64,000 bases of DNA. Origin: Bolinopsis microptera. Lineage: Eukaryota; Ctenophora; Tentaculata; Lobata; Bolinopsidae. The stretch spans positions 6,280,858-6,344,857 of the forward strand of contig NC_087075.1 of assembly GCF_026151205.1 (NCBI RefSeq), in the 5' to 3' direction. A program made the translations under genes and the position numbers. How positions within the stretch are numbered: position 1 is the first letter of the stretch; the number at the start of each line of letters is the position of its first letter. Below are positions 990 to 49,045 of this stretch, piece after piece. A model generated the notes under the pieces. That model was not told the origin of the DNA and made no database searches. It saw nothing but the letters and a program-made list of their open reading frames with translations.

Positions 990-3564
990 ATGTCACCTCC
1001 TATGTCAGGTGACAGTGATGAGCCAGATAGTTTAGATGAATTCCTTGTAGACGAAACTGCACACCCACAAACTGACCATCTCTGTATGTACGAGTAAGTA
1101 CTTAATTAATTAACCGTAATTAATTAATTAAGCGTAATTAGCACACTCGAGTAGGTGCTGTGATGAGTGATCCGTAGTCCGTATTTAGTACTTTAGTACT
1201 TTGAGAGACACAAGATAACATTATCAGTCTTCTAAAGAATTATGCTGCTCCGGACGTTCCTGACTCCGGAGGTACCTGACTCTGGAGCAGGTTATCCCAC
1301 TTATAACTATACAATTAAACGGCGACAATCTGGCTGTTGGAATAGTTAAATTATAACACTGAGTTTATGTAGTTATATCAACCTGATCATTGTGAGAGTC
1401 TACTTTAGGAAAGAGCACGGTGATCCTAGATACTCGGTGGATAGAAGAGGGAAACAGTCTGGTAAATGGGAGTGGAGAAACAATCATGACAGCAGCTTGA
1501 TTCCACCTGGTTCGTAAGTTTGCAATTTGCAATGTCACGTGACGTAATACTGTCACGTGACGTTACATTGTCACGTGATGTTACATTGTCACGTGATATT
1601 ACATTGTCACGTGATGTTACATTGTCACGTGATGTCACATTGTCACGTGATGTTACATTGTCACGTGATATTACATTGTCACGTGATGTTACATTGTCAC
1701 GTGACGTTACATTGTCACGTGATGTTACATTGTCACGTGATGTTACATTGTCACGTGATGTTACATTGTCACGTGATGTTACATTGTCACGTGCCCTGGT
1801 CCATGATAGGCCACAGCAGAAACTGTATAATATTAGATCGCCCGATAAAATTCCAGAATAGATATGGTACATTTTTTCGCCGTCGTCCACCCTTTCCCAT
1901 TTATATAAGATCAATTGATAAGTTTTCTCCCACTGTATTCTTGTGTAAATTTGTATTGATCCTGCTTGATGTGACAAGGAAAAATGCTCTTATCAGGAAA
2001 GGAATTACTCAACGTTTCAATGTTACAACAAATTATTTGTTACCCGGATTTTACATTTCCCCCAGTGTTAGAAAAGATACGTGCACCACCTGTTAGATTA
2101 ACCAGTGACTATACTCCACAGAGAATCAGGGAGAAGGGGCCGAGATGGTAAGTTAAAATGTTTCTATTAGAACCTGATAACTTATTCTTGAAGTCGTAAA
2201 TTATAAAACATTTAGATTGTTAAAGATTTGATCAGTGTGTTAATTATGATAATAGGATAATTATGATATGTGTTAAGAACATCAGATCTTCAATTATGAT
2301 CATAATAATATGTTCTTATGAGCATTATTAACTTAATATCTACAGGTTTGTAGAGAATGTTGTAAAGCAGCTTGACAAGGACCCTCTGTCTCTAGATCAC
2401 GTTGGCAATGTTGCAGTGCTGATTACCAAGAGTTTCCCTCTTGTTATATTTAATAAGCGAGGTACAGTTGTTGCAGTGCTGATTACCAAGAGTTTCCCTC
2501 TTGTTATATTTAATAAACGAGGTACAGTTGTGGAATTGTTCATATCGCGTTATCTTGAATCTTTGAATAATATTAATTATGACATATTATATTAGCATTG
2601 GTTTTGCTGAATTCTTTTAATCAATTAAAATTACATTAGATCTAAAAAATAAAGCGATAAAGCGAAACTAAAACTACAATATTACCGCTTTTACGTTCTT
2701 CAGCCAGCAAATCTGGTAGAAAAACGACGGAGATGATTCGGCAGATAATGGCAAACCAAAGTATTTCAGATAACGCTTTACTGGATATTATCATTGATGT
2801 TGTTAATTCAAGGTAAACATTATCTGACGAAAGAGTGTTTGAAAACCTCGGATATAAGCACATTCGTCAATAATTTCATTTTATCAGCTATGAGAAATAT
2901 TATAGAAATAAAATCACAAGTATGTACTCAGCGAATACATCAAGACTGAATTGTTAATTTCATCAGTTTTTAAATTACACTTCAATTTAAATTACAGAAC
3001 CTCAATCCAGGGCAGCAAAGAAGATTTTCAAAGATTTGCACCTCGCAACGGGTTTACAAACATTGCCAGTTGTTTTTGTAAACGAAAAGGCAATTGGGAA
3101 TTATGAAGCTCTGAAACGGTCTAACAAAGTTGGTGAGTATGGTAAAGGGCGGTAATTTTGCGGTAATTTTGCGGTAATTGTGCGGTAATTGTGCAGTAAT
3201 TGTACGGTAATTGTACGATAATTGTACGATGATTGTACGGTTATTGTACGGTAATTGTGTGACAATTGTGCAGTAATTGTGTGACAATTGTTCAGTAATT
3301 GTGCAGTAATTGTGCAATAATTGTGCGGTAATTGTATAATGATTGACTTAATAAGTTGATAGTTTGTTATATACTGGACGAAAATGAATTACGACTAATT
3401 ACGTTCAGTTGATTTTGCAATGCTTCCTAATTAATAGCAACTTCTTTTAGGGGCATTATTATTATTCTTTTATATACTTTTAAAAACATCGTTCAGGGGC
3501 GCTCTTGGCTTTGATAAAAAATGCAGTCAAGTTGGATTTGAGCAAATGTAAAGACTGCAACTGA
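990..3564 (+). CDS. glutaredoxin-like gene A, active site lost (spliced)
   Basis: Probable exons are 990-1093, 1409-1509 (or 1409-1461), 2066-2147, 2346-2461, 2704-2812, 3011-3132 and 3497-3564, giving about 233 (or 217) residues. The start of the third exon is the weak point; both options for exon 2 keep frame. A short charged N-terminus leads to a helix with the block GNVAVLITKSFPLVIFNK (first strand of the fold). The active-site loop reads ASKSGRK with no CxxC, then comes LPVVFVNEKAIGNYEAL (cis-Pro strand and glycine loop) and a C-terminal CKDCN followed by stop. Reading it as a glutaredoxin-fold protein rests on these motifs; loss of thiol chemistry is inferred. It is the first member of a same-strand array of nine paralogues. 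Confidence 0.75.
1530..1795. repeat. 18-bp minisatellite with an E-box in every unit
   Basis: About 15 near-identical units of TGTCACGTGATGTTACAT lie in an intron of glutaredoxin-like gene A. Each unit carries the palindrome CACGTG (E-box/bHLH core). All three frames on each strand happen to be partly open, so the apparent long ORFs across it are artefacts of the repeat. Confidence 0.95.
2410..2529 (+). repeat. 60-bp direct tandem duplication across an exon end
   Basis: Positions 2410-2469 and 2470-2529 are copies differing at a single base. The unit contains the end of exon 4 of gene A and its donor (CGAG|GTACAG). Splicing at the first donor (2462) or the second (2522) changes the product by exactly 20 in-frame residues. 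Confidence 0.9.
3145..3340. repeat. minisatellite, unit about GGTAATTGTGC
   Basis: About 17-19 degenerate units of 10-11 bp fill the start of the last intron of gene A, beginning just after the donor at 3133. Confidence 0.9.
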
Positions 3565-3897
3565 TAACAGAAATTTGACGTCAACTAAAAGTCAATGATT
3601 GAGTGGGGACCCCTAGGAACCTTGTTACCATGCAAATTACCTTGCATCTGTTTTACGCTGAATTCTCACACCAGATATTAACAATGGTCCTTCTTTCTTT
3701 TTTTTAAGAGAGGCTGGGCCAAGTTAGCCCACGAGAGGTTAGCATTGAGATGCTCTGCCTACCTCTGGGGTGTGGCAACCCTGGGGAAGGTTGCCGGTGA
3801 AATAAGAGTGAATGGTGGAGGATGGTGTAAAAAGTGACATGAGTCAAGATGTTACGCTTAAGTGCCAGCTGGGTTTGGAAAAGTAGAATGAGACGAG

Positions 3898-4228
3898 CAG
3901 TGGCGTAACTTTGCTTGTTGGCGCCCCCCCGCTCAGTGGCGAAAAGCGCCCCTAAAATTGTTTGTGTCCCTAAAAAATAAAAAAAAAAAAATAAAAGGTC
4001 GGGTACTTTTTTTCTCGCCCCCCTACAGCTTTTTGCGCCCCTGAAGCAAAAAAGGGTACCCCAAATATTTTTTTCGCGTCGACCGAACGCTAAATTGGAC
4101 AGGGAAATACACAAACAAGGCGTTTTTTCAGTGAAAGGGCCTAAAATTCAGGAAAATTGCGCCCCCCCTTATACGGCGCCCCCCCCCCCCGCAGAGCGGG
4201 GTCTGCGGGGCCCTAAGTTACGCCACTG
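3898..4228 (+). mobile_element. hAT-like MITE (CAGTGGCGTAAC ends)
   Basis: The 331-bp element begins CAGTGGCGTAACTT and ends with the exact inverse AAGTTACGCCACTG. It is flanked by the 8-bp duplication GAGACGAG (3890-3897 and 4229-4236). An 8-bp target site with CA...TG ends fits the hAT superfamily. There is no credible transposase; the interior is C/G-run rich. It lies in the A-B intergenic region. Confidence 0.88.
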
Positions 4229-4680
4229 GAGACGAGACAGCATATGAGTTAATACTCTAAATCACCCCGTTCTGATCCAGCTTTAGGAACCTTGCATCTG
4301 TTTTACGCTGAAAGTGAATTGTCACGCCAGATATTTATAATGGTCCTGGTAGCTTATTTAATTATTCCAATTATTTGACTATTCTCAAGTCATGCTTAAC
4401 CAACATTTGTTTGGTCGTTTAGTTACTTTAGTGATGCTATTTATTCTCTGTTGAGTAACACTATTATTTTATAATGCGATGTTTTTATACATTATTTGTT
4501 TTGATATCAATGTCGTCTCCACGAATACAAATGAGTAAATAAAAAGATACAAAATATCAAACATTTCTCGTGACTCAACTCTGGTTGATCCTGGATCACA
4601 GTTTGATTGGTTATTGATTTCTTTTTCGGCTGATCGTTCCACTATGACAAAACAACATTATATACTATAGGTCCTATGAA
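4229..4680. other. A-B intergenic region
   Basis: Beyond the MITE this stretch is ordinary AT-rich DNA. It has an AATAAA at about 4538-4543 and an acceptor-like ACTATAG at 4665-4671, about 10 bp before the ATG of gene B. I see no further gene. Confidence 0.5.
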
Positions 4681-7600
4681 ATGTCAGCGATAAATGTGGT
4701 TTCAGACCAGCCGAGCAGTGCACGTTCTGAAGACAGATCTACCAAGAGGATAGCAGTAGGTAACCAGGGCAACAGTGTAGATGATGTGGTGGCTGCTATA
4801 GCAAGTCAACATGATGACTCAGACTCAGATGACAGTACCGTTCCAGACCACCATCAAATCTACCAACGCAAGTTAGTTATAGTTTAACTTCTGTTATAAT
4901 GCATACAGTTCTATAAAGTGTATTAAAGTTTAGCACCAATTATAATGAATTGATGGGTTTGATTCAGCTGATCAGGGCCTTGTCTCAGCTTTTAATTTAT
5001 TCAATTTATTCTGTTGTTACATAATAAACTGAACAACAGAAATACTCAGGCCTACCATATTGTTATATACCCAGACCAGAGTACGATTATCTAATGGACA
5101 AATACTGGAAACAAAAAGAAAAGGAAAGGATACGAAACAAGGACTTAGAAAAACAATCGGAGAAAGGACATGGGTTGCATTGGCAGCACAAGCATTTCAA
5201 ACCGAGAGATATATTCGGATACAACGAAAAGGAGATTAAGGAGGTGAAAAAGCCTGAACTGAAAATAAAACAAAACAGGTTATTTTGGCTGCATTTTGTG
5301 GCTAAATTATCAGCTCAAAATATCAAACAAATCCTAACTCACTGCAGAGTTTCATGTTGCCTCATTTTCACTCATTGTAATAGGTTGTATAACCCGCCGC
5401 GCACGAGTGCGCGGCTCCCCCTGCATCGTAGAAACTCTACATAGTGAAACTAGTTACCACCTAGTTACCACCTAGTTACCACCTAGTTACCACCTAGTTA
5501 CCACCTAGTTACCACCCAGTTACCACCTAGTTACCACCTAGTTACCACCTAGCGACGTGATACAAGTAATTCCGCAGCTCATACCATCTGAAAGAAGGAG
5601 ATAACTATGTAATGAGCGAATATAATCAGCGGGTAGCCAGAAAGAACATGGCGAAGTCGAGGGAGCAAAACAAACTGAAGCAACTTATAGGGTATGTAAT
5701 ACCTTATCGGACCTTATTTGGACGGACATTACATGAACGGACATAATTATGAACGGACATTAATATGAACGCTCGAAGGCTTCTAAAACCATCAAAAATC
5801 CGAATTTTTAAAATTTTTTTGACGTTTTTTAAATTTCAGCAAATGATTTTTAAATCTATTTTTTATACAGTAAGTAAGAAAAGCAGTCATTAAGCAGTAA
5901 AAATTTTTACATATGTGTACATGATCAGTGTCTAACATCACATGTTTAAGTTGAATTCCAGTTTAATTCCAGTTTAATTCTTCATCAAATGGGTTTTCGT
6001 GCATGAAATAGTCCATGCTTAAAGCATCAGTGATTTCTAGCTTTATGGAAACCTTTTCTATCAAACTACCCCTGTCCTGCATTTCAGTGTTAACTTTTAC
6101 AAGCCATTCGGCGTGAAGTGGTTTTATCTTAGACAACTTAAGGTTAACCTTAACATCACGTGGAGCTTTCCTAGCACTGTTTTATTACCGCCCCCGAGTA
6201 ATATGAACTATAAGTATAACAACTTCGGACAATGTCCTTGGCAACACGATTTACCGTAATATCTAGAGGCTGGAACAAGTTTGTCATGTTGGCGGGGACT
6301 AGTTCATGAACTATGTTGTTAAGTGCCATAATTTCGTTGACTTTTTTCCGCCAAGTGACCCTTGAAAACATCATATAATACTAGTAAAGTCTTCTGTGCC
6401 TCCGGCAGACCAAGGAGAACCTTTCAATTCTGTCATATTCTGGACAAAAAGTTCGAAATGGAAATATTTTTGAAAAAATTTCAACGGACTTTAACATGGA
6501 CGGACATTAATTAAACGGACTTTATTTGAACGGACATTAAGGTGAACACTAGGGCGTCCAGCGTTCAAGTAATGTCCGTCCAAATAAGGTCCGATAAGGT
6601 ATCAGCAAATATCAGCAAATTTGTATTGCGACAACGAAAAGGGTAACCGAAGTAGCGGGTAACTAGCCGGCTACTAACTTCTTTATCAAATTAAGAGTCT
6701 ACAGTCATGTTATCATATTAGATGGCAGATGTCAAGAGGCCTGGTTACCTACTGTTGCCCTTTTTTAGGGATGATATTGCTGAGAGGGAAGCTATGCATA
6801 GAATAATGGAGCTAAAAACTAGAGACAAGGATTGGGATAAAAATTACCACGCGGAAAAGGGTGACTTCTACCTTCAACGAAAACATGGGTAAGCTGCAAT
6901 ACTCACATGTTAATTCTTTTCGTTTCATAGTATCATGTTTATTCAGTGGCGTAACAAAGGGCCCCGCCGACCCCGCTGTGTGGGGGGGGGGACCATCTTA
7001 CTTCTTAGCGGGGGGGGGGGGGGGGGGGGGGCAACAGGCAACGTAACGCTGGCACAACAAGACACAAAAGACACACTACTTATGTCACATGGGTGCGTCC
7101 TCAGAAAGTGTGTTATTACGATTGACATATTATCAGAATGATTGCAATTCAGAGACGGAAACTACAGTCAAGTTTGATATTTAGCTAGTTGTATTAGGGA
7201 AAGATTAGACTTGGTTTTTAACAACCCCTTGTTTAGAACTTTTATTTGATTCTGTTCAGAGATTTTGACAAGCACTGGAAACACCACGATGATAACTGGA
7301 ATGAAAGTTTCCGGAATGTAGCAGATTGGAGTTCCAAGAAGAAGAGTCACCATCACAAGTAGGCTTAAGAACCTTTACGTTATTGAGGCTAGGCCTAGAA
7401 ATTATTTCCACCGGTATTTTTTTCGAGCTGAACATCTTGCACCCTTTGAACATCCTCGATTTGCTTGAACCTCAAAAATGGCGAGCTGGAGGCCAGTTTT
7501 ACAGGTTTCTAATCGAAAGTATCAGAGCTACTTCAGCTATTGAGTTATGTCCAATTGAAGGAGAATTTGTGTGCCATTATATTGAGCACAATTTATTTGA

Positions 7601-10218
7601 GCCCGAAAAATTTGGGCAAAAAATTTGAACTCATTTGGGCGACCGAAAATTTGGGCACAAATTCTTCGAAAAATGAACGATTTTCCACTAAAATTTCAGT
7701 TAGATATTTGCCTTAGTTCATTATTATTCCAGTCATTTTGCTTTCAATTTTAAGCAAAATTAGAAAACTAAAATTTCCAATATTATTTCACTTGGATATG
7801 AAGAAAAAGCCATCTTTCTATAGATTTCAGGGCCACAGGCCAAATGCCAAAAGTTTGGTTAGCAAAAAATTTAGCAGACGGAAAAGATTTATGCAATTAA
7901 TTTGGTCTGCAAAAAATTTGGGCGAGAGGCCCGCTCAAATTTTTTGTCGCCCAAATTTTTGGGAATTAAGGTAAGCTAACATTTATCTTTATATCATCCA
8001 TCCTTAGGAACGGGTCTATGATAAACCAATACAACTTTGGCAGAGATCCAACTTTTGTGCCCCCACAACAAGCTTACCCTCACCATGACAAATATTGGTC
8101 CCGGCAATGGTTCGACCACTATCATTCATTCGAACGAAGCAAGAAAATGACTCTTGCAGTGCATCATAGGTTTGGGAAGCCTTTAAAAATCTCATTTTAA
8201 ACGTAATAACATGATGATGGTAATTATTATTTTTTAACCATCTCTAATAATTAAAAATAAATTCAATTGCAAAGATCTATGAATCCTATTATGCAGATTT
8301 CACGACGAAAGTATTACGCTAGAAGATTATTATCATCCCGATATTCGAAACATGGGTAAGTGCGGTCAGTGTCTCCCACCTCTAATCTCCATCTATATAT
8401 TAATCATAAGTCAGTGTCTCCCACCTCCAATCTCCATCTATTTAATAATCTTAAATCATTATAGCAGCCTACACTTACTTTATTCTCTGATTTTTATAAC
8501 TCACAAATTAATTCACTTATTAACTCACTAATTATCTCACTAATTAACTCACTGATTATCTCACTAATTACCTCACTAATTAACTCACTAATTACCTCAC
8601 TAATTACCTCACTAATTAACTGCGAACTCCTCCTGGTCAGGTCCTGACTGGTGGTTAAAGCATTTAAAAAGACAACTAGAAACAGAACCTCGTCCTATAA
8701 ATGCTATTGGCAATGTTGCAGAACTCATCATTAACAACTTCCCCATCACAATATTCACTGCTAGATGTTTGTAATGATTTATCTGCTCTAGTAGTTTTAA
8801 AGCGAGGATTTTCTTACCTGATATAATAGCGTTCTATCGTAATTTATCTGCACTAAATGAAACGAATACTTATAGATTAACCGTAGTTTTATAGCAAGGA
8901 GTTTCTTAGTTGATACTTATTAGCAGATGTACTAACTAACTATTACCATATATTTTAAACTTTCTTCATCTCTACTTCCAGACGAAAAGGACCACAAGAA
9001 GGTACTAGAAACAGTTGAGAAGTACCGTAAGAAAGCAGACGTCCTACCTGATGCTGTTATTTCTATAGAGTTAGATAACTCCAGAGCTGGGCTGAAGATC
9101 TTCAGTGACCTTCGTTATTATTCACCAGTAAGTTACCACCTAGTTACCACCTAGTTACCACCTAGTTACCTCCTAGTTACCACCTAGTTACCACCTAGTT
9201 ATCACCTAGTTACCACCTAGTTACCTCCTAGTTACCACCTAGTTACCACCTAGTTACCACGTAGTTACCACCTAGTTACCACCTAGTTACCACCTAGTTA
9301 CCACCTAGTTACCTCCTAGTTACCACCTAGTTACCACCTAGTTACCACCTAGTTACCACCTAGTTACCTCCTAGTTACCACCTAGTTACCACCTAGTTAC
9401 CACGTAGTTAGAAGATCTGAAGATCTTCAGTGACCTTCGTTATTATTCACCAGTAAGTTACCACCTTGTTACCACCTAGTTACCACCTGGTTACCACCTA
9501 GTTACCACCTAGTTACCACCTGGTTATCACCTAGTTACCACCTAGTTACCACCTAGTTACCACCTAGTTACCACCTAGTTACCACCTAGTTACCACCTAG
9601 TTACCATCAAGTTACCACCTGGTTACCACCTAGTTACCACCTAGTTACCATATATATTAATGCATTAATACTGATATTATCATTTAAAGTGCAGTTAACG
9701 AGTTATAGATGTGTTTTTAGATTAATCTGAATTCCGTTAAGAAATTAACAATTAAACACTTTTTCAGATGACCATGCTACCTCAAGTTTGGTTTAATGGT
9801 GAACTATTAGGTACTCTCGAGACCTTAAAGAAGCTAAAAAGGTGGGTTTTTCTAATTATTATTTATTTCTTTATTCTTTTATTATTTATACGAATAACAA
9901 CTTTCAAGTTATACGCGTCCCACTCCTTATCTTAATTTCAAATGACTTAGGTAAAACAAAGTTATCACTTTTATGTAAATTTCATACAACAACAATGAAA
10001 ATCTCTACAAAAAAACTAATTTATGATAATTTTTTGCTTAATGTAAATCAAATATCGTCAGGTTAAACCGTATTACACCCCTGTTGAGAGAAGCGGAGTT
10101 TGAGGGTAAAATGCCGTGTGAACTGTGTCAAGATGTAGTTAAGGGCTGGTACTCCCAGTGGCACCGACAACACTACCCATACTTTGACAGAAACATTCCT
10201 TACGAAGGATGGGGCTAA
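4681..10218 (+). CDS. glutaredoxin-like gene B with long charged N-terminus (11 exons)
   Basis: Exons 4681-4871, 5075-5278, 5578-5691, 6769-6888, 7260-7358, 8008-8169, 8297-8355, 8641-8766, 8982-9127, 9768-9841 and 10062-10218 total 1452 nt, or 483 residues plus stop, with every junction in phase. Residues 1 to about 310 are very polar, with an acidic first exon and then basic, aromatic and His-rich segments such as DKYWKQKEKERIRNK, DKHWKHHDDNWNESF and DKYWSRQWFDHYHSFE. These share a D-K-x-W pattern, so they may be internal repeats. Residues about 317-483 form the glutaredoxin-like part: GNVAELIINNFPITIFTAR, a loop without CxxC (YEKDHKK), VISIELDNS, LPQVWFNGELLGTLETLKK and PCELC. The role of the N-terminal region is unknown. 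A pogo element sits in intron 3, 8 bp past its donor. Confidence 0.85.
5448..5554. repeat. TAGTTACCACC minisatellite
   Basis: About nine 11-bp units lie in intron 2 of gene B, immediately upstream of exon 3. Confidence 0.95.
5702..6599 (-). mobile_element. pogo-like DNA transposon, internally deleted (copy 2)
   Basis: An 898-bp element with the same terminal repeats as the copy at 53-950 but opposite orientation, flanked by TA (5700-5701 and 6600-6601). The minus strand at 6171-6374 encodes the DDE-transposase fragment with VPANMTNLFQPLDITVNRVA, without the 6-bp insertion seen in copy 1. It is inserted in intron 3 of gene B. Confidence 0.9.
6944..7052 (+). mobile_element. decayed hAT-like MITE
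   Basis: The left end CAGTGGCGTAACAAAGG matches the hAT-like MITE family at 3898 and 23139. The right end (ACGTAACGCTGG) is degraded and the interior is dominated by a run of about 24 G. It lies in intron 4 of gene B. Confidence 0.65.
7380..7985. other. intronic block rich in ATTTGGGC motifs
   Basis: Intron 5 of gene B contains repeated ATTTGGGC/GCCCAAAT words in both orientations, for example near 7610-7660 and 7915-7965. This suggests an unclassified palindromic repeat. I found no target duplication and see no gene. Confidence 0.35.
8505..8625. repeat. ACTCACTAATTA minisatellite
   Basis: About ten degenerate 12-bp units lie directly upstream of exon 8 of gene B. Just before them, a segment beginning GTCAGTGTCTCCCACCTC is duplicated at about 8366 and 8411. 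Confidence 0.85.
9128..9655. repeat. TAGTTACCACC minisatellite seeded at a splice donor, with exon-end copy
   Basis: The array starts at the donor of exon 9 of gene B (CCA|GTAAGTTACCACC) and has over 40 units. In the middle, at about 9412-9455, the last roughly 35 nt of exon 9 plus its donor are repeated, then the array resumes. Confidence 0.95.
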
Positions 10219-18471: not shown

Positions 18472-18805
18472 TTTTATATGAATACAATTTACTTAGAGAC
18501 AACTGGCAAGGTGTTAGGTGAGTGATCTCACTCCTAGACAGTATTATTTGCTTTTGCCACCTGAAGCTGAACTAAAATTCCTGTGATTTTGAAACTGGAT
18601 ATTTTACATAATCTCAATGAAGGGTTTGAAGAAGCAGAAGAACACCAACTGGGAGAAGCCCATGTTCATCGTGATGATGCCTCCCACCCCACACACCCCT
18701 ACTTTGGGAGCCGTGTTTCTAGAATAGTCCTCACCACGCCTCACGCTCCTAGGATTACTTACTTTGATTATGAGAAGACACAGTTTCCACGGAATCGCCG
18801 CTGAA

Positions 18806-19327: not shown

Positions 19328-19342
19328 CTCTGTAGCCTGCAC

Positions 19343-20496
19343 ATGGATGCGTTAGTAGCACTGGGTATAACAAACTACGCTCTGTGGATAATACGCAACA
19401 CCAGATCAGCTCTGTTCACTAAAGACGGGTGTACTGTTTGTAAAGCTGCTATCAAGGTCTTAAAGAGATTGGGTTAGTAACCACATAGTTACCACCTAGT
19501 TACCACCTAGTTACCACCTAGTTACCACCTAGTTACCATCTAGTTACCACCTAGTTACTACCTAGTTACCACCTAGTTACCACCTTCTTACCACCTAGTT
19601 ACCACCTAGTTACCACCTAGTTACCACCTAGTTACCACCTATTTACCACCTTCATACCACCTAGTTACCACCTATTTACCACCTATTTACCACCTTCTTA
19701 CCACCTTCTTACCACTTAGTAACCACCTAGTTACCACCTAGTTACCACCTAGTCACCATCTACTGTTTAGGAAAGACTATTGGTATTGTTGACAAAGATG
19801 TGACGGTAATCGATTTGGATAAGAGGCCTGATAAGGAGAAAATCATCAGAGAGCTGGAGCAACTTACAGGTACTCTTTATCTTAAGGGGGATATAAAGTT
19901 AGAGAATTATTTTATGCTTAATCTCCCGTGCTTTGAACTGTGATCGTTTTCCATTTTAACTGTTTTAGCGAGCAATCTCTCAGGATCAAACACAGTTCCA
20001 CAGCTGTTTGTAAACGAACGTCACGTCGGTGGACTGGATAATATCAAGGTGATATTCATTAACATCTTTAATCTTATGTTCACGATAATTGTATGCATCA
20101 TTGTGACTGGTTTTAACCTATCACTTGAGGAACTGTACATCTCCGACAGGTAACTTTAAGGCATCGTGTACCGTCTAATATTGATATGTGAACCTGGGTC
20201 AGATCACTAAAAAATAAACCAAAGTTTACCATGAATCTTGATTTCATTGCGGTTTGATAATAAAATAATAATACGATCTCTATAAACAGAACGAGTACAA
20301 AAACCGAACGTTGCACAAAGAGTACGCGATAGCTCGTGCTATGGAGAAGCAGACTTGTGTTAACTGTGAGCTTAAGAACGTTGAAAAGTCATTACGAATG
20401 AGAACTCAACAGGGCTCACAACACGGTGCTGATCATCAAGAGAGTGTTCAGAGCAACTATAATGTTGACAGTTCCGACTCGGAGTCAGATTTTTAG
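19343..20496 (+). CDS. glutaredoxin-like gene F with CTVC active site (4 exons)
   Basis: Exons 19343-19472, 19771-19869, 19969-20048 and 20290-20496 total 516 nt (171 residues plus stop), all in phase. LWIIRNTRSALFTKDGCTVC puts a dithiol CTVC at residues 30-33, in the position of the glutaredoxin active site after the first strand. Then come VTVIDLDKRPD, VPQLFVNERHVGGLDNIK, a second pair CVNC at 126-129, and an acidic Ser/Asp tail (DSSDSESDF). A dithiol oxidoreductase role is the simplest inference. Possible AATAAA lies at 20569-20574, and gene G starts 227 bp after the stop. Confidence 0.85.
19475..19758. repeat. TAGTTACCACC minisatellite
   Basis: About 25 units, some mutated to CTTCTTACCACC, fill intron 1 of gene F from its donor (GG|GTTAGTAACCACATAG) nearly to the next acceptor. 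Confidence 0.93.
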
Positions 20497-20722
20497 TATA
20501 TTTTAAATGATATTATGTTAGAAATTAAGTTTTTTTTTTCAATTTCATGAAACTGTAAATTTCACAATAATAAAACTATAATTTCAAACATTTTGATTTA
20601 ATTTCGTCCAATATGATTCAATTTTATATAAAGCGTCAAAGATGTTAAATCCATGTTTAGAATTACTGATATTCTAAAAATAATCCGCTATATGTTTGTA
20701 TATATTCTCATAATGCTTTAGG

Positions 20723-23700
20723 ATGGTCCATCCGATAGACATCCTCAATGCAGGAGTTCCAGTGGACATCAAATGGCTTCTTGAACAGGTAATTATCAAA
20801 CTTCATTTCAAACTTTACACAAATCTGAAGTAGTTAACAGTAAACATTTTGAAGATCTGATAAGTCTACAAAGAAGATCGGTAAAAACTTAAAATTATAA
20901 TTAAATGGCAATAAACTTAAAAACTAAAACATAAAACTTAAACAGCTAGGTAAACACATTGATAAGTGACTCAAACCTTATTTTAGAATTTTTGCCAAGT
21001 CAAAAGCCAAATAATGTCTGCTTTAATTTTTGTCTGAACGTATTGAACTATAATTTGTAAATGACACGGACACATTGCAGGTACGAATATTGGTGATATC
21101 GAGCAGGGAATGTTACCTAGTTACCACCTAGTTACCACCTAGTTACCACATAGTTACCAACTAGTTACCACCTAGTTACCACCTAGTTACCACCTAGTTA
21201 CCACATTGCAGGTACGAATATTGGTGATATCGAGCAGCGAATGTCATTGGTGCATGAAGACGAAGGACATCTTGTACAAGGTTACGATTTATTACATTTT
21301 ACCTCACTTTTTATTAAGTTTTAATGTATTTTCTAGTATTGGGGTTTTTATTTTTAACTGATTATGATGTAAACAATAAATTAGTCCATTAGAGACAATC
21401 CCCTCACGAGAGGCTTTCAACCAGGTCGGAAAACAGTGCATGCTGAATGATAACGAAATGTTGTTCCTCAATATCGACTCATTTAAAAAGGGTAAAAAGG
21501 TTTGTAACTTTCATTATATCTATATTCAAAAAGGGTAAAAAGGTTTGACGTTTTACCTATTGTAACAAACATATTAATTCATTACCTATTATCATTACCA
21601 ACACCTATACAGCTGTTTGACCAAGTATCGAAAATGACCGACATAGAGACAGTCCCCCAAGTGTTCATTGACGAGACTTTTATCGGGGGGTACCCTGATG
21701 TTAAGATGCTTCACGAGAGGCGATACATTCATGAAATGTTGCTACCAAAGCCTGGGGTTAGTAATACGTTTACTTAGTTACCACCTAGTTACCACCTAGT
21801 TACCACCTAGTTACCACCTAGTTACCACCTAGTTACCACCTAGTTACCACCTAGTTACCACCTAGTTACCACCTAGTTACCACCTAGTTACCACCTAGTT
21901 ACCACCTAGTTACCACCTAGTTACCACCTAGCTACCACCTAGTTACCACCTAGCTACCACTTTGTTACCACCTAGTAACCAAAGCCTGGGATTAGTAATA
22001 CGTTTACCTAGTTACCACCTAGTTACCACCTAGTTACCACCTAGTTACCACCTAGTTACCACCTAGTTACCACCTAGTTACCACCTAGTTACCACCTAGT
22101 TACCACCTAGTTACCACCTAGTTACCACCTAGTTACCACCTAGCTACCAAAGCCTGGGGTTAGTAATACGTTTACCTAGTTACCACCTAGCTACCACCTA
22201 GTTACCACCTAGTTACCACCTAGTTACCACCTAGTTACCACCTAGTTACCACCTAGTAACCAAAACCTGGGGTTAGTAATACGTTTACCTAGTTACCACC
22301 TAGTTACCACCTAGTTACCACCTAGTTACCACCTAGTAACCAAAGCTTGGGATTAGTAATACGTTAACTTAGTTACCACCTAGTTACCACCTAGTAACCA
22401 AAGCCTGGGGTTAGTAATACGTTTACCTAGTTACCACCTAGTTACCACCTAGCTACCACCTAGTTACCACCTAGTTACCACCTAGTTACCACCTAGTTAC
22501 CACCTAGTAACCAAAGCCTGGGGTTAGTAATACGTTTACCTAGTAACCACCTAGTAACCAAAGCCTGGGGTTAGTAATACGTTTACCTAGTTACCACCTA
22601 GTTACCACCTAGCTACCACCTAGTTACCACCTAGCTACCAAAGCCTGGGATAAGTAATACGTTTACTTAGTTACCACCTAGTTACCACCTAGTTACCACC
22701 TAGCTACCACCTAGTAACCACCTAGCTACCAAAGCCTGGGATAAGTAATACGTTTACTTAGTTACCACCTAGTTACCACCTAGCTACTACCTAGTAACCA
22801 CCTAGCTACCAAAGCCTGGGATAAGTAATACGTTTACCTAGTTACCACCTACCTTATCGGACCTTATTTGGACGGACATTACATGAACGGACATAATTGT
22901 GAACGGACATTAATATGAACGCTCGAAGGCATTCAAAACCATCAAAAATCCGAATTTTTATTAATTTTGGACGTTTTTTTAATTTCAGCAAATGATTTTT
23001 TAATCCATTCATTATACAGTAAGTAAGAATAGCAGTCATTAAGCAGTAAAAATGTTAAAATATGTGTACATGATCAGTGTCTAATATCACATATCATCTT
23101 CATTAAATAGGGTTTCGTGCATGAAATAGTCCATGCTTCAGTGGCGTAACGAAAGGCCCTGCTGACCCCGCTGTGCAGGGGGGCGCCCGGCGCCGTCTTA
23201 GGGGGGCGCCAAATCGTCGTTTGAATGTGGGACAATTTCGAAAACTTAACTAAAGTACTAGCAAAACTGCGCGTTTTGCTCTAGATACACACCTTTTTAG
23301 AGATTTTACCGGCGTATTCTTTAAAATCACCTAATTTGTTCAATTTTAGAGAGGGGCACCAAAAGGGGAGGGGGCGCCAACAAGGGGGCGCTTTTTTCGG
23401 CAGGGGGCGCCAACAGGCAACGTTACGCCACTGCCATGCTTAAACAAGCATCAGTGATTTCTAGCTTTGTGGAAACTTTTTTTATCAAACTACCCTGGTC
23501 CTGCATTTCAGTGTTAACTTTTACAAGCCATTCGGCGTTAAGTGGTTTTATCTTAGACAACTTAAGGTTAACCTTAACATCACTTGGAGCCTTCCTAGCA
23601 CTGTTTCATAACCTCCCCTCAGTAATATGAACTATAAAAACGTCGGACAATGTCCTTGGCAACACGATTTACCGTAATATCTAGAGGCTGGAACAAGTTT

Positions 23701-25568
23701 GTCATGTTGGCGGGGACTAGCTCATGAACTATGTTGTTGAGTGTCATGATTTCGTTGACTTTTTCCGCCAAGTGACCCTTGAAAACATCATATACTAGTA
23801 GAGTTTTCTGTGCCTCCGGCAGACCAAGGAGAACCTTTCCGTCGTTAACTTACGGCACAATAAAGTTCTCATAGTTGTCATATTCTGGGTAAAAAGTTCG
23901 AAATGGAAAAATTGTTGAAAGAATTTCAACGGACTTTAACTTGGACGGACATTAATTGAACGGACTTTATTTGAACGGACATTAAGATGAACGCTAGGGC
24001 CTCCAGCGTTCAAGTAATGTCCGTCCAAGTAAGGTCCGATAAGGTAGTTACCACCTAGCTACCACCTAGTAACCACCTAGCTACCAAAGCCTGGGATAAG
24101 TAATACGTTTACTTAGTTACCACCTAGTTACCACCTAGCTACCAAAGCCTGGGGTTAGTAATACGTTTACCTAGTTACCACCTAGTTACCACCTAGCTAC
24201 CACCTAGTAACCACCTAGCTACCAAAGCCTGGGATTAGTAATACGTTTTTTAGTTACCACCTAGTTACCACCTAGTTACCAAAGCCTGGGGTTAGTAATA
24301 CGTTAACTTATAAGTTGACGGAATTCAAGTTTACTTTTAGTTTATTGACAATTTTGATAGCTAGCGAACATATAAAGGTGTAGACACATTTAGATTTTTA
24401 AGATGTAATATGAGAATTCATCACAGAAGAAATCTGACGGAGCTAAAGAAGAAACAAAGTTTGCCAGTCGTCTAGATATAAATAATGAGGTTTGTACTTT
24501 TTTTAAACGGATTGAGAAAGATGTAGCAGTTTCAATTTCCTTAGAACTTTAGAAGAATTTCAGTAAGATCTTTTATAACTAATAGTTACGATAGCTATAT
24601 TAATTTAACCTGTATTCAAAACCTCGGGCGTCTATTTCAGTTGTGTCCAATGTGCGTGGCAGAAGAAATACAGAAAGGTAGACTTGAAAAACGAGAAACT
24701 GATCTGAAAGAAAAAGCTAAGGATTACATGTAAGTGAATGTAAAATTCTAAAATGAATAAGTGGTTATACAATTTACCAATTACCATAAACTTAAAGCGA
24801 CGTCAACCAAAAAATTATGTATTTTTCATAGCTGGTCCGTCGATTTTCTCCGTCCGTACACTAGAGTACCTTGGTTTTTACCGTACCTCGAGAGTACCCA
24901 AAGTATTTTTGCAACTTTTGACGCTATTTTCACACGTTTTAAACAACTTTTAAAAAGTTTAAATTCTTCAATTTATCATCAAGATAAAGTTAAAGATATT
25001 AAGCGGAATCAATAAACATCTCATTCTCATATTCACTGTCTTCAGCCGTAGGGAAGTACAAAATTGAGCTTGTGTAATAATCTTAATGCTTTACGTACCT
25101 TAAATTAAATTTTTCCTGCTGTTTTAACGTACCCTAGAGTGCGTACGGACTACGGACCAACAATGGTATTTTTATTTCGTGTTTAACATGACATATACGT
25201 CACACATATGTACCTGTACCTTTATTCGAATATCTAAATTATCAGCTGCTTCCACTCTAATCTTCAGGTTAGCTGGTTCAGCAGTAGAACTTGCCAGAAA
25301 ACAACTAACTAAACATCACAACAGACACTCACACTCTAGTTAACACCTAGTAACCACCTAGTTACCACCTAGTTACCACCTAGTTACCACCTAGTTACCA
25401 CCTAGTTACCACCTAGTTACCCCCTAGTTACCACCTAGTTACCACCTAGTTACCACTTCCATTTTCAGGTTAGCTCGTTCAGCAGTAGAACTTGCCAGAA
25501 AACAACTAACTAAACATCACAACAGACACTCACACTCCAAGAAAAGTTTCATGTCGAGCTTCTTTTAA
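20723..25568 (+). CDS. glutaredoxin-like gene G with CHWC active site (7 exons)
   Basis: Exons 20723-20788, 21212-21280, 21425-21499, 21613-21756, 24415-24489, 24641-24729 and 25469-25568 total 618 nt (205 residues plus stop). The fold shows VRILVISSSECHWCMK (CHWC at 33-36), NEMLFLNIDSF, VPQVFIDETFIGGYPDVK and a second pair CPMC at 145-148. A Lys/Glu-rich helix and a His/Arg/Ser tail follow. The ATG sits 1 nt after a TTTAG acceptor-like site. Three introns contain exon-edge copies, and the intron 21757-24414 also holds a pogo element with a nested MITE. The acceptor at 21424 was preferred over an upstream in-frame one because it fits the fold better. Confidence 0.82.
21068..21211. repeat. TAGTTACCACC array between two copies of an exon start
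   Basis: The acceptor and first roughly 45 nt of exon 2 of gene G appear at about 21068-21113, run into about eight 11-bp units, and then recur in full from about 21201. Confidence 0.93.
21757..22849. repeat. higher-order repeat of exon end plus donor and TAGTTACCACC units
   Basis: The exon 4 end of gene G with its donor (AAAGCCTGGG|GTTAGTAATACG) recurs about ten times here, at roughly 21981, 22149, 22261, 22342, 22399, 22512, 22560, 22640, 22731 and 22811. Each copy is followed by a variable number of 11-bp units. The structure continues after the transposon insertion at 24045. Confidence 0.95.
22852..24044 (-). mobile_element. pogo-like DNA transposon (copy 3) carrying a nested MITE
   Basis: A 1193-bp element with the same terminal repeats and TA flanks (22850-22851 and 24045-24046), inserted into the minisatellite of gene G. 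It is oriented like copy 2, with minus-strand transposase remnants. Removing the nested 295-bp insert and its 8-bp duplication leaves about 890 bp, the size of the other two copies. Confidence 0.9.
23139..23433. mobile_element. hAT-like MITE nested in the pogo element
   Basis: A 295-bp element with ends CAGTGGCGTAACG and CGTTACGCCACTG. It is flanked by the 8-bp duplication CCATGCTT (23131-23138 and 23434-23441). The uninterrupted site CCATGCTT is visible in pogo copy 2. Confidence 0.92.
24045..24310. repeat. continuation of gene G higher-order repeat
   Basis: Four more copies of the AAAGCCTGGG exon-end word (about 24084, 24145, 24226, 24281) with TAGTTACCACC-type units between them. Confidence 0.93.
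25266..25468. repeat. TAGTTACCACC array between two copies of the last exon of gene G
   Basis: A truncated copy of the last exon with its acceptor (25259-25340) runs into about ten 11-bp units. The acceptor and exon then repeat in full from about 25461. The copies differ by a few bases. Confidence 0.93.
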
Positions 25569-25920: not shown

Positions 25921-25949
25921 TTTGTTGTATATCGATCGTTGTAAAATTA

Positions 25950-28454
25950 ATGACCACATACAACACGCTAAAAAATCTTTTCACCGATAATACAAATGAT
26001 ACGTTAGATAAATCCAATAGCATGTCCGGATTAGAAGTGCTACTGGGACTCGGGATCACTGCCAACGCTATGTGGATTATTCAGAACGCTAGAATTGCTA
26101 TCTTCGGGAAAAATGGATGCAAATGGTGTAAAAAGGTATAAAGATGAAATACTGTTGTGCTGAGAAGTTTTACTATGTTCCTTTTGCCTGCCTCTTTCAC
26201 TATGGCTCATTTTTGAAATCCTTTAAAAGCACATGTTATCTCGGGAACGTACATATTATCGGAGATTTCTAATATTGGATCATTTTCCCGGCTTCAGATT
26301 TGGTTCCAAATGTTTAAATAAAGCAATGAGCCAATAAATCAAACAAAAAATCACGAAAATAAATTCCCACAAAAGCCAATGATTTTACAGTCATCAATTT
26401 TGCAGTTGAAGAGGTACCTATCAAAGTTGAGTCAGGATTACAGTTTCCAAGAGGACGACATTGTAGAGGTCGACATTGACAAGATCAAGGATGGTTACGA
26501 TGTGAGTTGCACTTCTGGTAATCAAGATAGAACCCCCTAGTTACCACCTAGTTACCACCTAGTTACCACCTAGTTACCACCTAGTTACCACCTAGTTACC
26601 ACCTAGTTGCCACCTAGTTACCACATAGTTACCACCTAGTTACCACCTAATCACCACCTAGTTACCACCTAGTTACCACCTAGTTACCACCTAGTTACCA
26701 CCTAGTTACCACCTAGTTACCACCTAGTTACCACCTAGTTACCACCTAGTTACCACCTAGTTACCTAGGAATAGACATTTGGTTAAATTTGGTTAAAGGG
26801 CAGGGGGTGGGGGTTTGAGGGAGGGCAATAACATCGGATTACGTTGAATTTTCTTGCAAGCTATAAGTTTTCTGTTAATTAAGTTTGCACCATGTTCCAT
26901 TTCAGATGTTTGATGGCTTGAGTAAAATTACAGGCAACAATACGGTTCCACAGGTAGGAGAAATTTTCAGTTACTTAATTGATTAATATTATTATGCAAA
27001 AGGAAGATTCAATGGTTTTCTGCGATGCATTCTGCAGCTGAATCCAGAAATCATATTTAAAGGATAAATCAGTCCTTTTTGCAGCTCGGGTTTAAGGTGA
27101 GGTACTAATAATCTTTTATTTTTGGATATTGTTTCTTTGAGTTATAATTCAAGGTTTTCGTTGACGAGACTTACGTTGGGGGATACCCGGAGTTAGTTAC
27201 CACCTAGTTACCACCTAGTTACCACCTAGTTACCACCTAGTTACCACCTAGTTACCACCTAGTTACCACCTAGTTGCCACCTAGTTACCACATAGTTACC
27301 ACCTAGTTACCACCTAATCACCACCTAGTTACCACCTAGTTACCACCTAGTTACCACCTAGTTACCACCTAGTTACCACCTAGTTACCACCTAGTTACCA
27401 CCTAGTTACCACCTAGTTACCACCTAGTTACCTAGGAATAGACATTTGGTTAAATTTGGTTAAAGGGCAGGGGGTGGGGGTTTGAGGGAGGGCAATAACA
27501 TCGGATTACGTTGAATTTTCTTGCAAGCTATAAGTTTTCTGTTAATTAAGTTTGCACCATGTTCCATTTCAGATGTTTGATGGCTTGAGTAAAATTACAG
27601 GCAACAATACGGTTCCACAGGTAGGAGAAATTTTCAGTTACTTAATTGATTAATATTATTATGCAAAAGGAAGATTCAATGGTTTTCTGCGATGCATTCT
27701 GCAGCTGAATCCAGAAATCATATTTAAAGGATAAATCAGTCCTTTTTGCAGCTCGGGTTTAAGGTGAGGTACTAATAATCTTTTATTTTTGGATATTGTT
27801 TCTTTGAGTTATAATTCAAGGTTTTCGTTGACGAGACTTACGTTGGGGGATACCCGGAGTTAGTTACCACCTAGTTACCACCTAGTTACCACCTAGTTAC
27901 CACCTAGTTACCACCTAGTTATCACCTAGTTACCACCTATATAATTCCAGGTTTTCGTTGACGAGACTTACGTTGGGGGATACCCGGAGTTTAAAAACAT
28001 GTACAGAAGTAAACAGATTCAAAAGATGCTGAACCCCGTAATGATGAACAAACAGATAACCCATTGTAAAAAGTGTAGCCAGGTGAGTTTGTTGTTGATA
28101 AATTATGTTGATTAATTGATTTCTCATTTGATAAAATTAATGGATTTCCCGTCGGACAGGAAGAAAAATCAAATGTTGGCAAATTAAAAAGGTTATTACA
28201 TGTAATAATGTTGAAATTATCTAATCTCAATTACTCATACTTAGTCATAGTTATAGTTATTCTTTATCTATCGAAGAATGCTTTAATTTAAACAGAAATT
28301 CGTAACGGTCATGGTTTATTAATGAGTAAATTCTCAGGAGAAAAAAGAGGAGAAACGAAAAAGGAAAAAGAAGATGGATGACCTCTTAAAAGACAATGAT
28401 GATGAATTGTTATTTGCTAATAACGCAATTGCGATTCCACAATTCGATTCTTGA
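25950..28454 (+). CDS. glutaredoxin-like gene H with CKWC active site (5 exons)
   Basis: Exons 25950-26135, 26406-26501, 26906-26953 (or its identical copy 27573-27620), 27951-28082 and 28338-28454 total 579 nt (192 residues plus stop). The N-terminus has a hydrophobic stretch (LEVLLGLGITANAMWII) and then ARIAIFGKNGCKWCKK, with CKWC at 57-60. IVEVDIDKIKD, MFDGLSKITGNNTVPQ, VFVDETYVGGYPEFK and a second pair CKKC at 149-152 follow, then a Lys-rich then acidic tail. A 667-bp duplication gives two identical copies of the 48-nt exon 3. Using both would add 16 in-frame residues and duplicate the helix before the cis-Pro, so I assume one is used. Confidence 0.83.
26530..27860. repeat. 667-bp tandem duplication containing an exon
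   Basis: Two apparently identical copies offset by 667 bp each contain a TAGTTACCACC array, exon 3 of gene H, its intron and the first roughly 40 nt of exon 4 with its acceptor (27154-27193 and 27821-27860). A third copy of the exon 4 start at 27951 is the functional one. Confidence 0.93.
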
Positions 28455-28654: not shown

Positions 28655-28700
28655 TGTAACCTAGTTACCACCTAGTTACCACCTAGTAACGACTGAAGAG
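28655..28700. repeat. short TAGTTACCACC array with flanking direct repeat
   Basis: About three units sit between two copies of AACGACTGAAGAGATCATGT (28638 and 28688); the second copy contains the ATG of gene I. Confidence 0.9.
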
Positions 28701-28703
28701 ATC

Positions 28704-29852
28704 ATGTCTATGTTGTGGAGTATCATAAGCACCATACAGCTTAAAAAGGTCGTCATTTTTAATAGGTAGAACTAATGTGCATAGAACCATCCTTTGTTAT
28801 ATGATTTTATTTATGGTATTTATATTGTATTATGCGAGGTCACTAAGAGTTTGCCTTCCTTTAACGTTAATCTATGATGGAAATTACCTCGATTTTATTT
28901 TCAAAGAAAGAATGGAAATGAAATAATAGTAAATATCTCAGGAGCAAATCAGTATACACGAAGAAAGTTAAAAAGTTGATAACCAAGAATGGTTACAGTG
29001 AGGACGATGCTTTAGTTATAAATCTTGATGAGATGAAAGCAGGGGATACAGTCCTGGCTCATCTATACAAACTTACAGGTACCTGGAATTTATTAAATCA
29101 CTGTGTCGGAAAATAGATTTTTGGATCATGTCTGCATTATTGCGTTTTTGTCTGCAATAAATGTTCTCTCCATGAAAACCCCACTCGAATATCAACAAAC
29201 TTCCCTCCGCAAACTTTCTTCCGCAAATTCAGGAGACACGGATCTTCCAAAAGTGTTTGTAGAGGAAACCTACATGGGAGGATACAATGACTTGAAGGCA
29301 GCGATCATGTCCGGACAGTTCAAATTCATCACCAGAGACAGGTTTAATATCTAGTAATGGAGAAAGTTATTTTAAAGTTCTCAAGCTTAACTGAAGGCAC
29401 TACAGTAATATAATCAATAGATAAGAACGATTGCATTTATGAATAATTATGACACTCGCAGTTAAAGTAATGATCAAGTTTTATTTGTTGGATATTTCCA
29501 AAGTGTTGACTGGATAAATCATAATTGCAACACTACAAATCTATTACATTTTTTGAGTATTATGTATCACCATGGAAATATTTTAAGCGGGTAAAAGCCT
29601 GTCCAAACCCAGGCTACATAACATTAAGACTTTGTTGTAAATTGTATGAAAAGCATTAATAGATTATTTTAACTTTCCAATTATTCCAGGGGCTGTATAG
29701 AGTGCACAGATGACTGGAGGAGTAACAGATTTACAGATAAACTTGATATTTTACCAACACTACCTGCATCGTCAGCTGTTCCTCCACAGACTTCAGCTTT
29801 CTCTTTCACTGACAAACTCATGGGAATTAAACCTTTCTTTAAGAAACATTGA
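28704..29852 (+). CDS. glutaredoxin-like gene I, active site lost (4 exons)
   Basis: Exons 28704-28765, 28942-29078, 29233-29341 and 29690-29852 total 471 nt (156 residues plus stop), in phase. The first strand LKKVVIFNR is followed by SKSVYTKKVKKL where CxxC would lie, then ALVINLDEMKAGD, LPKVFVEETYMGGYNDLK, the C-terminal pair CIEC at 105-108 and a 48-residue tail (FTDKLDILPTLPASS, ending GIKPFFKKH). The ATG is 250 bp after the stop of gene H. Part of its last intron and last exon is found again three times in the LamG gene units further right. Confidence 0.84.
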
Positions 29853-49044: not shown

Positions 49045-49045
49045 T

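What the first reader, a model, noticed from the sequence alone, without database searches (positions are those of the whole stretch)
990..29852. Array of nine glutaredoxin-like paralogues on one strand
Hand-built exon chains give nine consecutive same-strand genes that each carry the glutaredoxin strand/cis-Pro/GG signature and, in eight of nine, a CxxC pair near the C-terminus. Eight chains close exactly in frame, which is strong internal support. I know of no described cluster of this size and layout. Sequence between paralogues is highly diverged outside the motifs, so it is an old expansion, perhaps a set of specialised redox or scaffold proteins.
Basis: partly seen in the sequence, partly recalled or inferred. 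Interest (0 to 1): 0.82.

Follow-up and report, generated by a model that had tools for sequence, protein, structure and literature searches.

The report
Tandem array of twelve glutaredoxin-like genes
A comb-jelly genome carries twelve glutaredoxin-like genes in a row, nine of which have lost the catalytic cysteines while eleven keep a cysteine pair in their tail, which suggests that an old redox enzyme was turned into a set of binding proteins.

Summary
All nine same-strand chains close in frame with GT-AG introns. Their profile matches solved glutaredoxins at E 2.9e-17. Three more genes lie left of the window: twelve genes, 44 kb, one strand. Only g6, g7 and g8 keep an active-site CxxC; eleven of twelve keep a tail CxxC, exactly 39 residues after cis-Pro in seven. 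Eight inactive genes alone still match glutaredoxins, E 7.5e-11. The genome is a ctenophore by its photoproteins and has spliced-leader RNA gene candidates. From g2 to g9 the genes are 218-538 bp apart, and a moderate splice acceptor lies within 20 nt of the ATG in 8 of 12 against 19% of control ATGs, though a stricter threshold shows no clear excess: an operon is possible, unproven. Most likely these are non-catalytic glutaredoxin-fold adaptors plus three catalytic members. Mnemiopsis colloblast candidates are enriched for 'glutaredoxin', a lead only. No transcripts or other ctenophore genomes were available.

The parts
1009..3564 (+). g1 (280 aa): exons 1009-1093, 1397-1509, 1997-2147, 2346-2461, 2704-2812, 3011-3132, 3497-3564; its first exon (C4:6280659-6280737) lies left of the window. 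Active site lost; C-terminal CKDC
4681..10218 (+). g2 (410 aa): nine exons, Grx part 8641-10218. Active site lost; C-terminal CELC
10672..13160 (+). g3 (325 aa): seven exons. Active site lost; C-terminal CKLC; N-terminal IQIELVSSSSSEED
13379..15408 (+). g4 (145 aa): four exons. Active site lost; C-terminal CPDCENC
15640..18804 (+). g5 (175 aa, or 119 aa if it ends at 18471): active site lost, no C-terminal CxxC in either version; the only member without any pair
19343..20496 (+). g6 (171 aa): active-site CTVC and C-terminal CVNC; Pfam Grx E 3.2e-12
20723..25568 (+). g7 (201 aa): active-site CHWC and C-terminal CPMC; Pfam Grx E 3.9e-7
25950..28454 (+). g8 (192 aa): exons 25950-26135, 26406-26501, 27573-27620, 27951-28082, 28338-28454; active-site CKWC and C-terminal CKKC; Pfam Grx E 2e-11
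28704..29852 (+). g9 (156 aa): four exons. Active site lost; C-terminal CIEC
13161..13378 (+). 218-bp gap g3 to g4, the shortest stop-to-ATG gap; others from g2 on: g2-g3 453, g4-g5 231, g5-g6 538 (871 if g5 ends at 18471), g6-g7 226, g7-g8 381, g8-g9 249 bp
20707..20725 (+). example of a possible splice acceptor touching a start codon (g7: ...ATGCTTTAG|GATG)

Best explanation
An old tandem expansion of a class I (dithiol) glutaredoxin in a ctenophore. SHOWN: twelve same-strand gene models with open frames; glutaredoxin homology; N-terminal catalytic CxxC kept in three and gone in nine; a C-terminal tail CxxC kept in eleven. INFERRED: three members (g6, g7, g8) still do thiol-disulfide or glutathione chemistry. 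The nine others are non-catalytic glutaredoxin-fold adaptors that bind partners through the old substrate groove and, in the left genes, through variable N-terminal arms. The tail CxxC is the conserved working part: a two-cysteine hook that either shares a metal (probably zinc) or a disulfide with a second protomer or partner, and that the three catalytic neighbours could oxidise or reduce. The mRNAs are probably capped by spliced-leader trans-splicing. A role in the tentacle adhesive cells (colloblasts) is the best lead on place, no more.
For: All twelve models close with GT-AG introns. Leave-one-out detection of each of the 12. Nine-gene profile to a solved Glutaredoxin-2 (3d4m) E 2.9e-17; eight inactive genes alone, g9 left out, E 7.5e-11. 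Of 34 introns in alignment columns 0-100 of the domain, 21 share column and phase with at least one other member (my count), and some link inactive and catalytic genes: +80 phase 0 in g4, g5, g8; +32 phase 0 in u1, g4, g7; +95 phase 0 in u2, g6. Tail CxxC in 11 of 12, at exactly +39 from cis-Pro in 7; 29 of 34 cysteines in 2,799 residues lie in a CxxC. The inactive genes u1-u3, g1-g5 form one clade at 93/92 support. A recent duplicate of u1 differs from it at 3 of 654 coding bases against 51 of 3,335 non-coding bases, repeats and gaps left out (one-sided Fisher P 0.016). Precedents: ROXY9, a plant CC-type glutaredoxin, works with its catalytic cysteine mutated (PMC11887855, abstract and outline); GRXCR2 lacks the active-site cysteines (PMC6114524, passages).
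Against: No transcript, protein or structure was available. No other ctenophore genome could be searched, so purifying selection rests on the open frames and on one 4.6-kb duplicate; of its three coding differences two change the protein and one of these is a stop at codon 10. g5 lacks the tail CxxC. In g4, g7, g8 and g9 its spacing differs. The 13 other introns in the domain, all of g9's among them, are not shared. No branch of the tree passes the tool's 'starred' threshold, and the two other Grx genes of this genome that I put in fall among g6-g8 (75/69), so monophyly of the array is not shown. Metal or disulfide chemistry of the tail is untested. The colloblast paper does not say, in what I read, which glutaredoxin genes it means.
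Confidence: 0.6

Rival explanations
1. Still a redox set: the tail CxxC has taken over as the active or resolving pair, so all eleven members with a CxxC are working oxidoreductases with relocated chemistry.
For: Tail CxxC is the most constant cysteine feature (11 of 12); cysteines outside CxxC pairs are very rare (5 of 34).
Against: The match to solved glutaredoxins ends at profile position 91-109 in the rows listed, before the tail pair at about 111-114 of 117, far in sequence from the N-terminal active site. The two inner residues are not conserved (CPIC, CEKC, CKIC, CKDC, CELC, CKLC, CPDC, CVNC, CPMC, CKKC, CIEC).
Confidence: 0.15
2. A GRXCR-type family (glutaredoxin-like domain plus C-terminal cysteine-rich zinc-type region, stereocilia proteins), shortened to one CxxC.
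For: Same order of parts: degenerate glutaredoxin domain, then CxxC. GRXCR2 also lacks the active-site cysteines (PMC6114524, passages).
Against: The C-terminal pattern CX2CX7CX2CX20CX2CX7C given there is absent in 12 of 12; there is one CxxC, or CPDCENC in g4, or none in g5. Best solved-structure matches are glutaredoxins of the Grx1/Grx2 type, but GRXCR structures may simply not be in that set.
Confidence: 0.08
3. A decaying array: young or relaxed duplicates on the way to pseudogenes, with no common function.
For: Extra exon copies inside g5 and g8, some running into minisatellite; the distant u1 copy has a stop at codon 10.
Against: Twelve deeply diverged genes all keep open frames and canonical splice sites, and the tail CxxC is kept in 11.
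Confidence: 0.05
4. On expression only: independent monocistronic genes, each with its own promoter; the short gaps mean only a compact array, and the acceptors belong to trans-splicing of single-gene transcripts or are chance.
For: Left part is not tight (3,804, 2,381 and 1,116 bp for u1-u2, u2-u3, g1-g2). At the lower quartile of the array's own internal acceptors only 3 of 12 ATGs have an acceptor, against 17% of controls. Poly(A)-signal words are not clearly enriched after stops: 5 of 12 against 30% of control stretches. Operons had not been reported in ctenophores by 2021 (PMC7986045, passages).
Against: Seven consecutive gaps of 218-538 bp from g2 to g9 leave little room for a 3' UTR, a promoter and an outron.
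Confidence: 0.5

Closest known systems
Class I dithiol glutaredoxins (GLRX2, yeast Grx1/Grx2)
   Same: Glutaredoxin profile match, best 3d4m 'Glutaredoxin-2, mitochondrial' E 2.9e-17; cis-Pro, mostly GG; g6-g8 keep CxxC
   Different: Nine of twelve lack the active-site CxxC; added C-terminal CxxC tail and, in the left genes, long charged N-terminal arms; tandem array
GRXCR1/GRXCR2
   Same: Degenerate glutaredoxin domain followed by C-terminal CxxC
   Different: One CxxC instead of the seven-cysteine pattern printed in PMC6114524
Plant CC-type glutaredoxins (ROXYs)
   Same: Large family (21 in Arabidopsis) of which at least ROXY9 works without redox chemistry (PMC11887855 abstract)
   Different: Another kingdom; its active-site form and any clustering were not tested here
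Glutaredoxin domain of thioredoxin-glutathione reductase / TXNRD3
   Same: Among the solved matches (3h8q, Thioredoxin reductase 3, E 2.2e-14)
   Different: No reductase domain in any array gene

Membership tests
Glutaredoxin (Pfam PF00462) | Score over the curated cut-off (22.9 bits) | tested here: inconclusive
   Met by g6, g7, g8 (3 of 12). Below it: u1 15.3, u3 14.5, u2 14.1, g4 14, g9 13.1 bits; no match for g1, g2, g3, g5 (g1, g2, g5 in earlier, shorter versions). The inactive group as a profile matches solved glutaredoxins, E 7.5e-11
Class I dithiol glutaredoxin, catalytic | N-terminal CxxC (or CxxS) active site | tested here: not met
   Met in 3 of 12 (CTVC, CHWC, CKWC); absent in 9 of 12
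Class I dithiol glutaredoxin, catalytic | cis-Pro and GG glutathione-site motifs | tested here: met
   cis-Pro 12 of 12; GG in 9 of 12 (u1 GS, g1 GN, g2 GT)
Class I dithiol glutaredoxin, catalytic | Glutathione-dependent oxidoreductase activity | not testable with these tools
   needs protein
GRXCR | C-terminal CX2CX7CX2CX20CX2CX7C | tested here: not met
   0 of 12
Thioredoxin-glutathione reductase | Reductase domain after the glutaredoxin domain | tested here: not met
   0 of 12 models have room for one (44 to 117 residues from cis-Pro to the end); no such Pfam hit
SL trans-spliced operon | Spliced-leader RNA genes in the genome | tested here: met
   106 hits of the conserved leader end plus donor against 11 for the reversed control, most of the 100 listed in tandem arrays; leader resembles Hormiphora's by eye; 5S rRNA in 2 of the 3 stretches read. 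Candidates by sequence only
SL trans-spliced operon | Short intercistronic gaps, same strand | tested here: inconclusive
   218-538 bp for seven gaps from g2 to g9; 425 to 3,804 bp for the four to the left
SL trans-spliced operon | Acceptor just upstream of each start codon | tested here: inconclusive
   8 of 12 score 3 bits or more within 20 nt against 19% of 1,606 control ATGs, binomial P 4e-4; but at the lower quartile of internal acceptors, within 40 nt, 3 of 12 against 17% of controls, no clear excess; u2, g3, g8, g9 are weak or distant
SL trans-spliced operon | A polycistronic transcript | not testable with these tools
   no RNA data

The most novel reading that the evidence does not exclude
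The right part of the array (at least g2-g9) is a ctenophore operon: one transcript of glutaredoxin-like genes cut into mRNAs by spliced-leader trans-splicing. It makes a matched set of three catalytic and several non-catalytic glutaredoxin-fold proteins that assemble through their tail CxxC hooks, perhaps in colloblasts. It would be the first operon in ctenophores, going by the statement of PMC7986045 (2021) that none had been reported there.
Probability: 0.22. Interest if true: 0.75.

Novelty: new variant of a known kind. Interest (0 to 1): 0.5.

Why it matters
If the models are right, an animal lineage that PMC10232365 (title) places as sister to other animals turned a redox enzyme into a family of mostly non-catalytic proteins, and what selection kept was a tail cysteine pair, not the active site. 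That gives a ready test of what a glutaredoxin fold does without its chemistry. If the array is an operon, it would show that ctenophores, known to use spliced leaders, also use them to cut polycistronic transcripts, which had not been reported by 2021 according to the paper I read on this point.

Tried and rejected
Promoter/terminator scans and the prokaryote, phage and plasmid collections were not used: eukaryote window. Rfam (gathering threshold) and tRNA scans of the window found nothing. The Hormiphora leader's last 21 bases, with 3 mismatches allowed, were hardly more frequent than the control in this genome (59 hits against 46), nor was a variant taken from one hit (9 against 9); only the short conserved end plus donor found the leader genes. 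Poly(A)-signal words after stops: 5 of 12 against 30%. Pfam gave no glutaredoxin match for g1, g2, g3 or g5. One search was a first try with wrong frames for g1 and most of g2. An alternative middle exon for g4 in another frame had no compatible junction. The first g7 model had an over-long exon 6; a wrong acceptor was used and corrected to 24641. The first g1 model had a non-GT-AG first junction, corrected. g5 has two possible ends. A single giant multidomain gene was rejected because every unit closes with its own stop and the next opens with its own ATG. Horizontal origin was not pursued. Structure prediction was not run: its rule asks for proteins read letter for letter from the DNA, and these are spliced chains, so I did not submit them. 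The count '4' of cysteines outside CxxC is off by one, because two CxxC of g4 share a cysteine; one search gives 29 of 34 inside, 5 outside. By hand, with 1.2% Cys, about 0.08 CxxC are expected in the twelve tails (548 positions); the 0.001 printed uses a circular frequency and is not relied on. The acceptor test was run with windows of 10, 20, 30 and 40 nt and several thresholds. Those give P 2e-4 to 0.03 and the median test gives 0.01, all uncorrected; the stricter threshold shows no clear excess (3 of 12 against 17%). The acceptor matrix comes from the array's own introns, whose borders my script had partly chosen by splice-site score.
Full report
WHAT IS THERE. The window is C4:6280858-6344857 of a 264.65-Mb, 232-contig eukaryote genome. 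All nine close. Searching this genome with g3 showed more exons to the left. Reading upstream stretches gave three more whole genes: u1 (C4:6266533-6269164, 217 aa), u2 (6272969-6275241, 305 aa) and u3 (6277623-6280233, 222 aa), and a first exon of g1 outside the window. No further member was seen between 6242000 and u1 with any of the twelve as query. In the three protein searches of the genome no other member shows on this stretch right of g9; the only other C4 match is the distant copy of u1. So there are twelve genes on one strand over 44,177 bp, with 61 introns of median length 285 bp.

IS IT CHANCE. Leave-one-out profiles find each of the 12 genes in 3,075 six-frame pieces of 103 kb, best exon E 9.5e-6 to 4.2e-24. 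The two best hits outside the models were always the same two extra exon copies, in g5 (C4:6298542) and g8 (C4:6307736), both inside the array; the first beats the own best exon of g2 and g6 by a little. With all twelve in the profile the third such hit is at E 1.0. The nine-gene profile matches solved glutaredoxins at 2.9e-17 (3d4m, Glutaredoxin-2, mitochondrial), 7.5e-15 (2fls, Glutaredoxin-2) and 2.2e-14 (3h8q, Thioredoxin reductase 3). Because g6-g8 alone could drive that, I repeated it with eight of the nine inactive genes, u1-u3 and g1-g5: still 7.5e-11. Pfam passes only g6, g7 and g8; u1, u2, u3, g4 and g9 are below the cut-off and g1, g2, g3 and g5 have no match.

ANATOMY. Active site: g6 CTVC, g7 CHWC, g8 CKWC; the other nine have no cysteine pair there. 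Cis-Pro is kept in 12 of 12 and GG in 9 of 12. Tail CxxC: 11 of 12, at +39 from cis-Pro in u1, u2, u3, g1, g2, g3, g6; +40 in g8; +35/+38 in g4; +33 in g9; +56 in g7; none in g5. Of 34 cysteines in 2,799 residues, 29 lie in a CxxC. The glutaredoxin match stops at profile position 91-109 in the listed rows and the tail pair follows at about 111-114. The left genes carry charged N-terminal arms; u1, u3 and g3 share a hydrophobic run followed by SSSSEE.

HISTORY. Of 34 introns in columns 0-100 of the domain, 21 share column and phase with another member and 13 do not, both introns of g9 among the latter (counted): +18/1 in u3, g1, g2, g3; +74/0 in u3, g2, g3; +80/0 in g4, g5, g8; +32/0 in u1, g4, g7; +59/0 in g7, g8; +95/0 in u2, g6; +46/0 in u2, u3; +100/1 in u1, g1. 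The tree puts u1-u3, g1-g5 together (93/92) with g9 weakly beside them (75/69); no fork passes the tool's strict mark, the root is a midpoint, and the two other Grx of this genome that I added fall among g6-g8. The order of the tree roughly follows the order on the chromosome, as stepwise tandem duplication gives. Loss of the active site is thus best read as early in the left group and again, or earlier, in g9; this is inference. A 4.6-kb inverted, 96-98% identical copy of the u1 region lies at C4:11.84 Mb. Its exons differ at 3 of 654 bases against 51 of 3,335 outside (one-sided P 0.016). Its splice sites are kept, but two of the three coding changes alter the protein and one is a stop at codon 10, so the copy itself may be dead or may start elsewhere.

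WHICH ANIMAL. An aequorin query gave 55 matches, 51 of them covering query 9-184 or 9-185 in one open frame, many in tandem. The one that I translated (L012) matches berovin (1.2e-121) and mnemiopsin 1 (2.4e-121) far above obelin (2.9e-20). That makes it a ctenophore. Size and pattern hits on contigs C1-C13, of which the six whose length I saw are 16.3-26.2 Mb, fit Bolinopsis microptera, for which PMC10232365 gives 13 chromosome-scale scaffolds and about 254 Mbp (passages); the species is my inference.

EXPRESSION. In Hormiphora a spliced leader is on 56% of Iso-Seq reads, a lower bound (PMC8527503 section 37). Here the conserved end AATTTGAG plus donor GTAAG occurs 106 times against 11 for the reversed control; most of the 100 places listed are in tandem arrays on C3, C5 and C13. 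Of eleven copies read in three stretches, the eight of L013 and L015 read ...TTTCAACACTACTATATAACAAATAATTTGAG|gtaag (one cut short by the stretch) and the three of L014 are variants, like Hormiphora's leader by eye; 5S rRNA genes lie between copies in L014 and L015, not in L013. In the array, stop-to-ATG gaps from g2 to g9 are 453, 218, 231, 538, 226, 381 and 249 bp; to the left they are 3,804, 2,381, 425 and 1,116. An acceptor scoring 3 bits or more lies within 20 nt of the ATG in 8 of 12 genes, against 19% of 1,606 other ATGs (P 4e-4); within 40 nt and at the lower quartile of the array's own internal acceptors it is 3 of 12 against 17%, no clear excess. Poly(A) words are not clearly enriched (5 of 12 against 30%). 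So trans-splicing is likely, and an operon is possible. PMC7986045 (2021, passages) states that operons and polycistronic mRNAs had not been reported in ctenophores.

HOW IT LIKELY WORKS. Shown: fold family by sequence, loss of catalytic cysteines in nine, persistence of the tail pair in eleven, open frames. Inferred: the nine are adaptors. Redox-independent glutaredoxin-like proteins exist: ROXY9 works with its catalytic cysteine mutated (PMC11887855 abstract), and GRXCR2 lacks the active-site cysteines and is required for stereocilia morphogenesis (PMC6114524 title and passages). One CxxC per chain is half a zinc site or one disulfide, so I favour a hook joining two chains, serviced by g6-g8. 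Nothing here tests that chemistry. Place of action: 'glutaredoxin' is among the over-represented annotations of 189 Mnemiopsis colloblast candidates (PMC6278862 section 7); which genes is not stated in what I read.

NOVELTY. Known kind (glutaredoxin-fold paralogues), new variant (mostly active-site-free, conserved tail CxxC, twelve-gene ctenophore array). Searches 'glutaredoxin' with 'ctenophore' and with 'Mnemiopsis' list four papers each; the listings and the one paper opened (PMC6278862) describe no such array. The library is partial. Interest 0.5: solid and odd, with testable bold readings, but without RNA, relatives or biochemistry.

Noticed in passing
G000 C3:13511053-13533399, C5:21341873-21352033, C13:12783472-12952504, C13:15242051 (L013, L014, L015): Tandem spliced-leader RNA gene candidates, repeat about 591, 858 and 880 bp on C3, C5 and C13, with 5S rRNA between copies in L014 (C13) and L015 (C5).
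   Followed up: partly
G000 C1:21.999-22.007 Mb, C5:17.013-17.026 Mb, C13:11.082-11.094 Mb, C2:11.25 Mb, C3:3.4-3.8 and 16.4 Mb: Large tandem arrays of single-frame photoprotein-like genes (55 aequorin matches; one compared with solved structures).
   Followed up: partly
L003 4213-8812 and L005: Inverted 4.6-kb duplicate of the whole u1 region, 5.6 Mb away on the same chromosome, 96-98% identical; copy has a stop at codon 10. Could be a haplotype or assembly effect.
   Followed up: partly
window 26532-27939 and 17685-17792: 741-bp near-identical duplication (99.7%) that gives g8's middle exon a second copy, and a second copy of g5's GG exon running into a minisatellite; both will mislead gene finders.
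   Followed up: no
window 42526-42680, 49044-49286, 58042-58284: Copies (90-95%) of g9's last exon, and in two places of nearby intron, inside larger repeats of the right half of the window: an exon captured by a repeat, or the reverse.
   Followed up: no
window 9131-9650, 11347-11641, 14372-14911, 17761-18357, 21775-22811 and more: One 11-bp minisatellite (AGTTACCACCT and variants) in many introns, in both orientations, in places right at a splice border (11347).
   Followed up: no
u1 residues 9-26, u3 13-28, g3 5-18: Hydrophobic run plus SSSSEE (IQIVLDGSSSSEEESEED, IVVSLISDSSSSSEEE, IQIELVSSSSSEED): looks like a phospho-regulated SUMO-interacting motif (recalled pattern, not tested).
   Followed up: no
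L006 483-1955 (C9) and L007 (C1, with similar matches on C164): Other glutaredoxins of this genome: a 491-aa single open frame with an N-terminal glutaredoxin part (rest looks like DEP and DUF547, recalled), and more ordinary ones on C1, one exon with CPFC.
   Followed up: no
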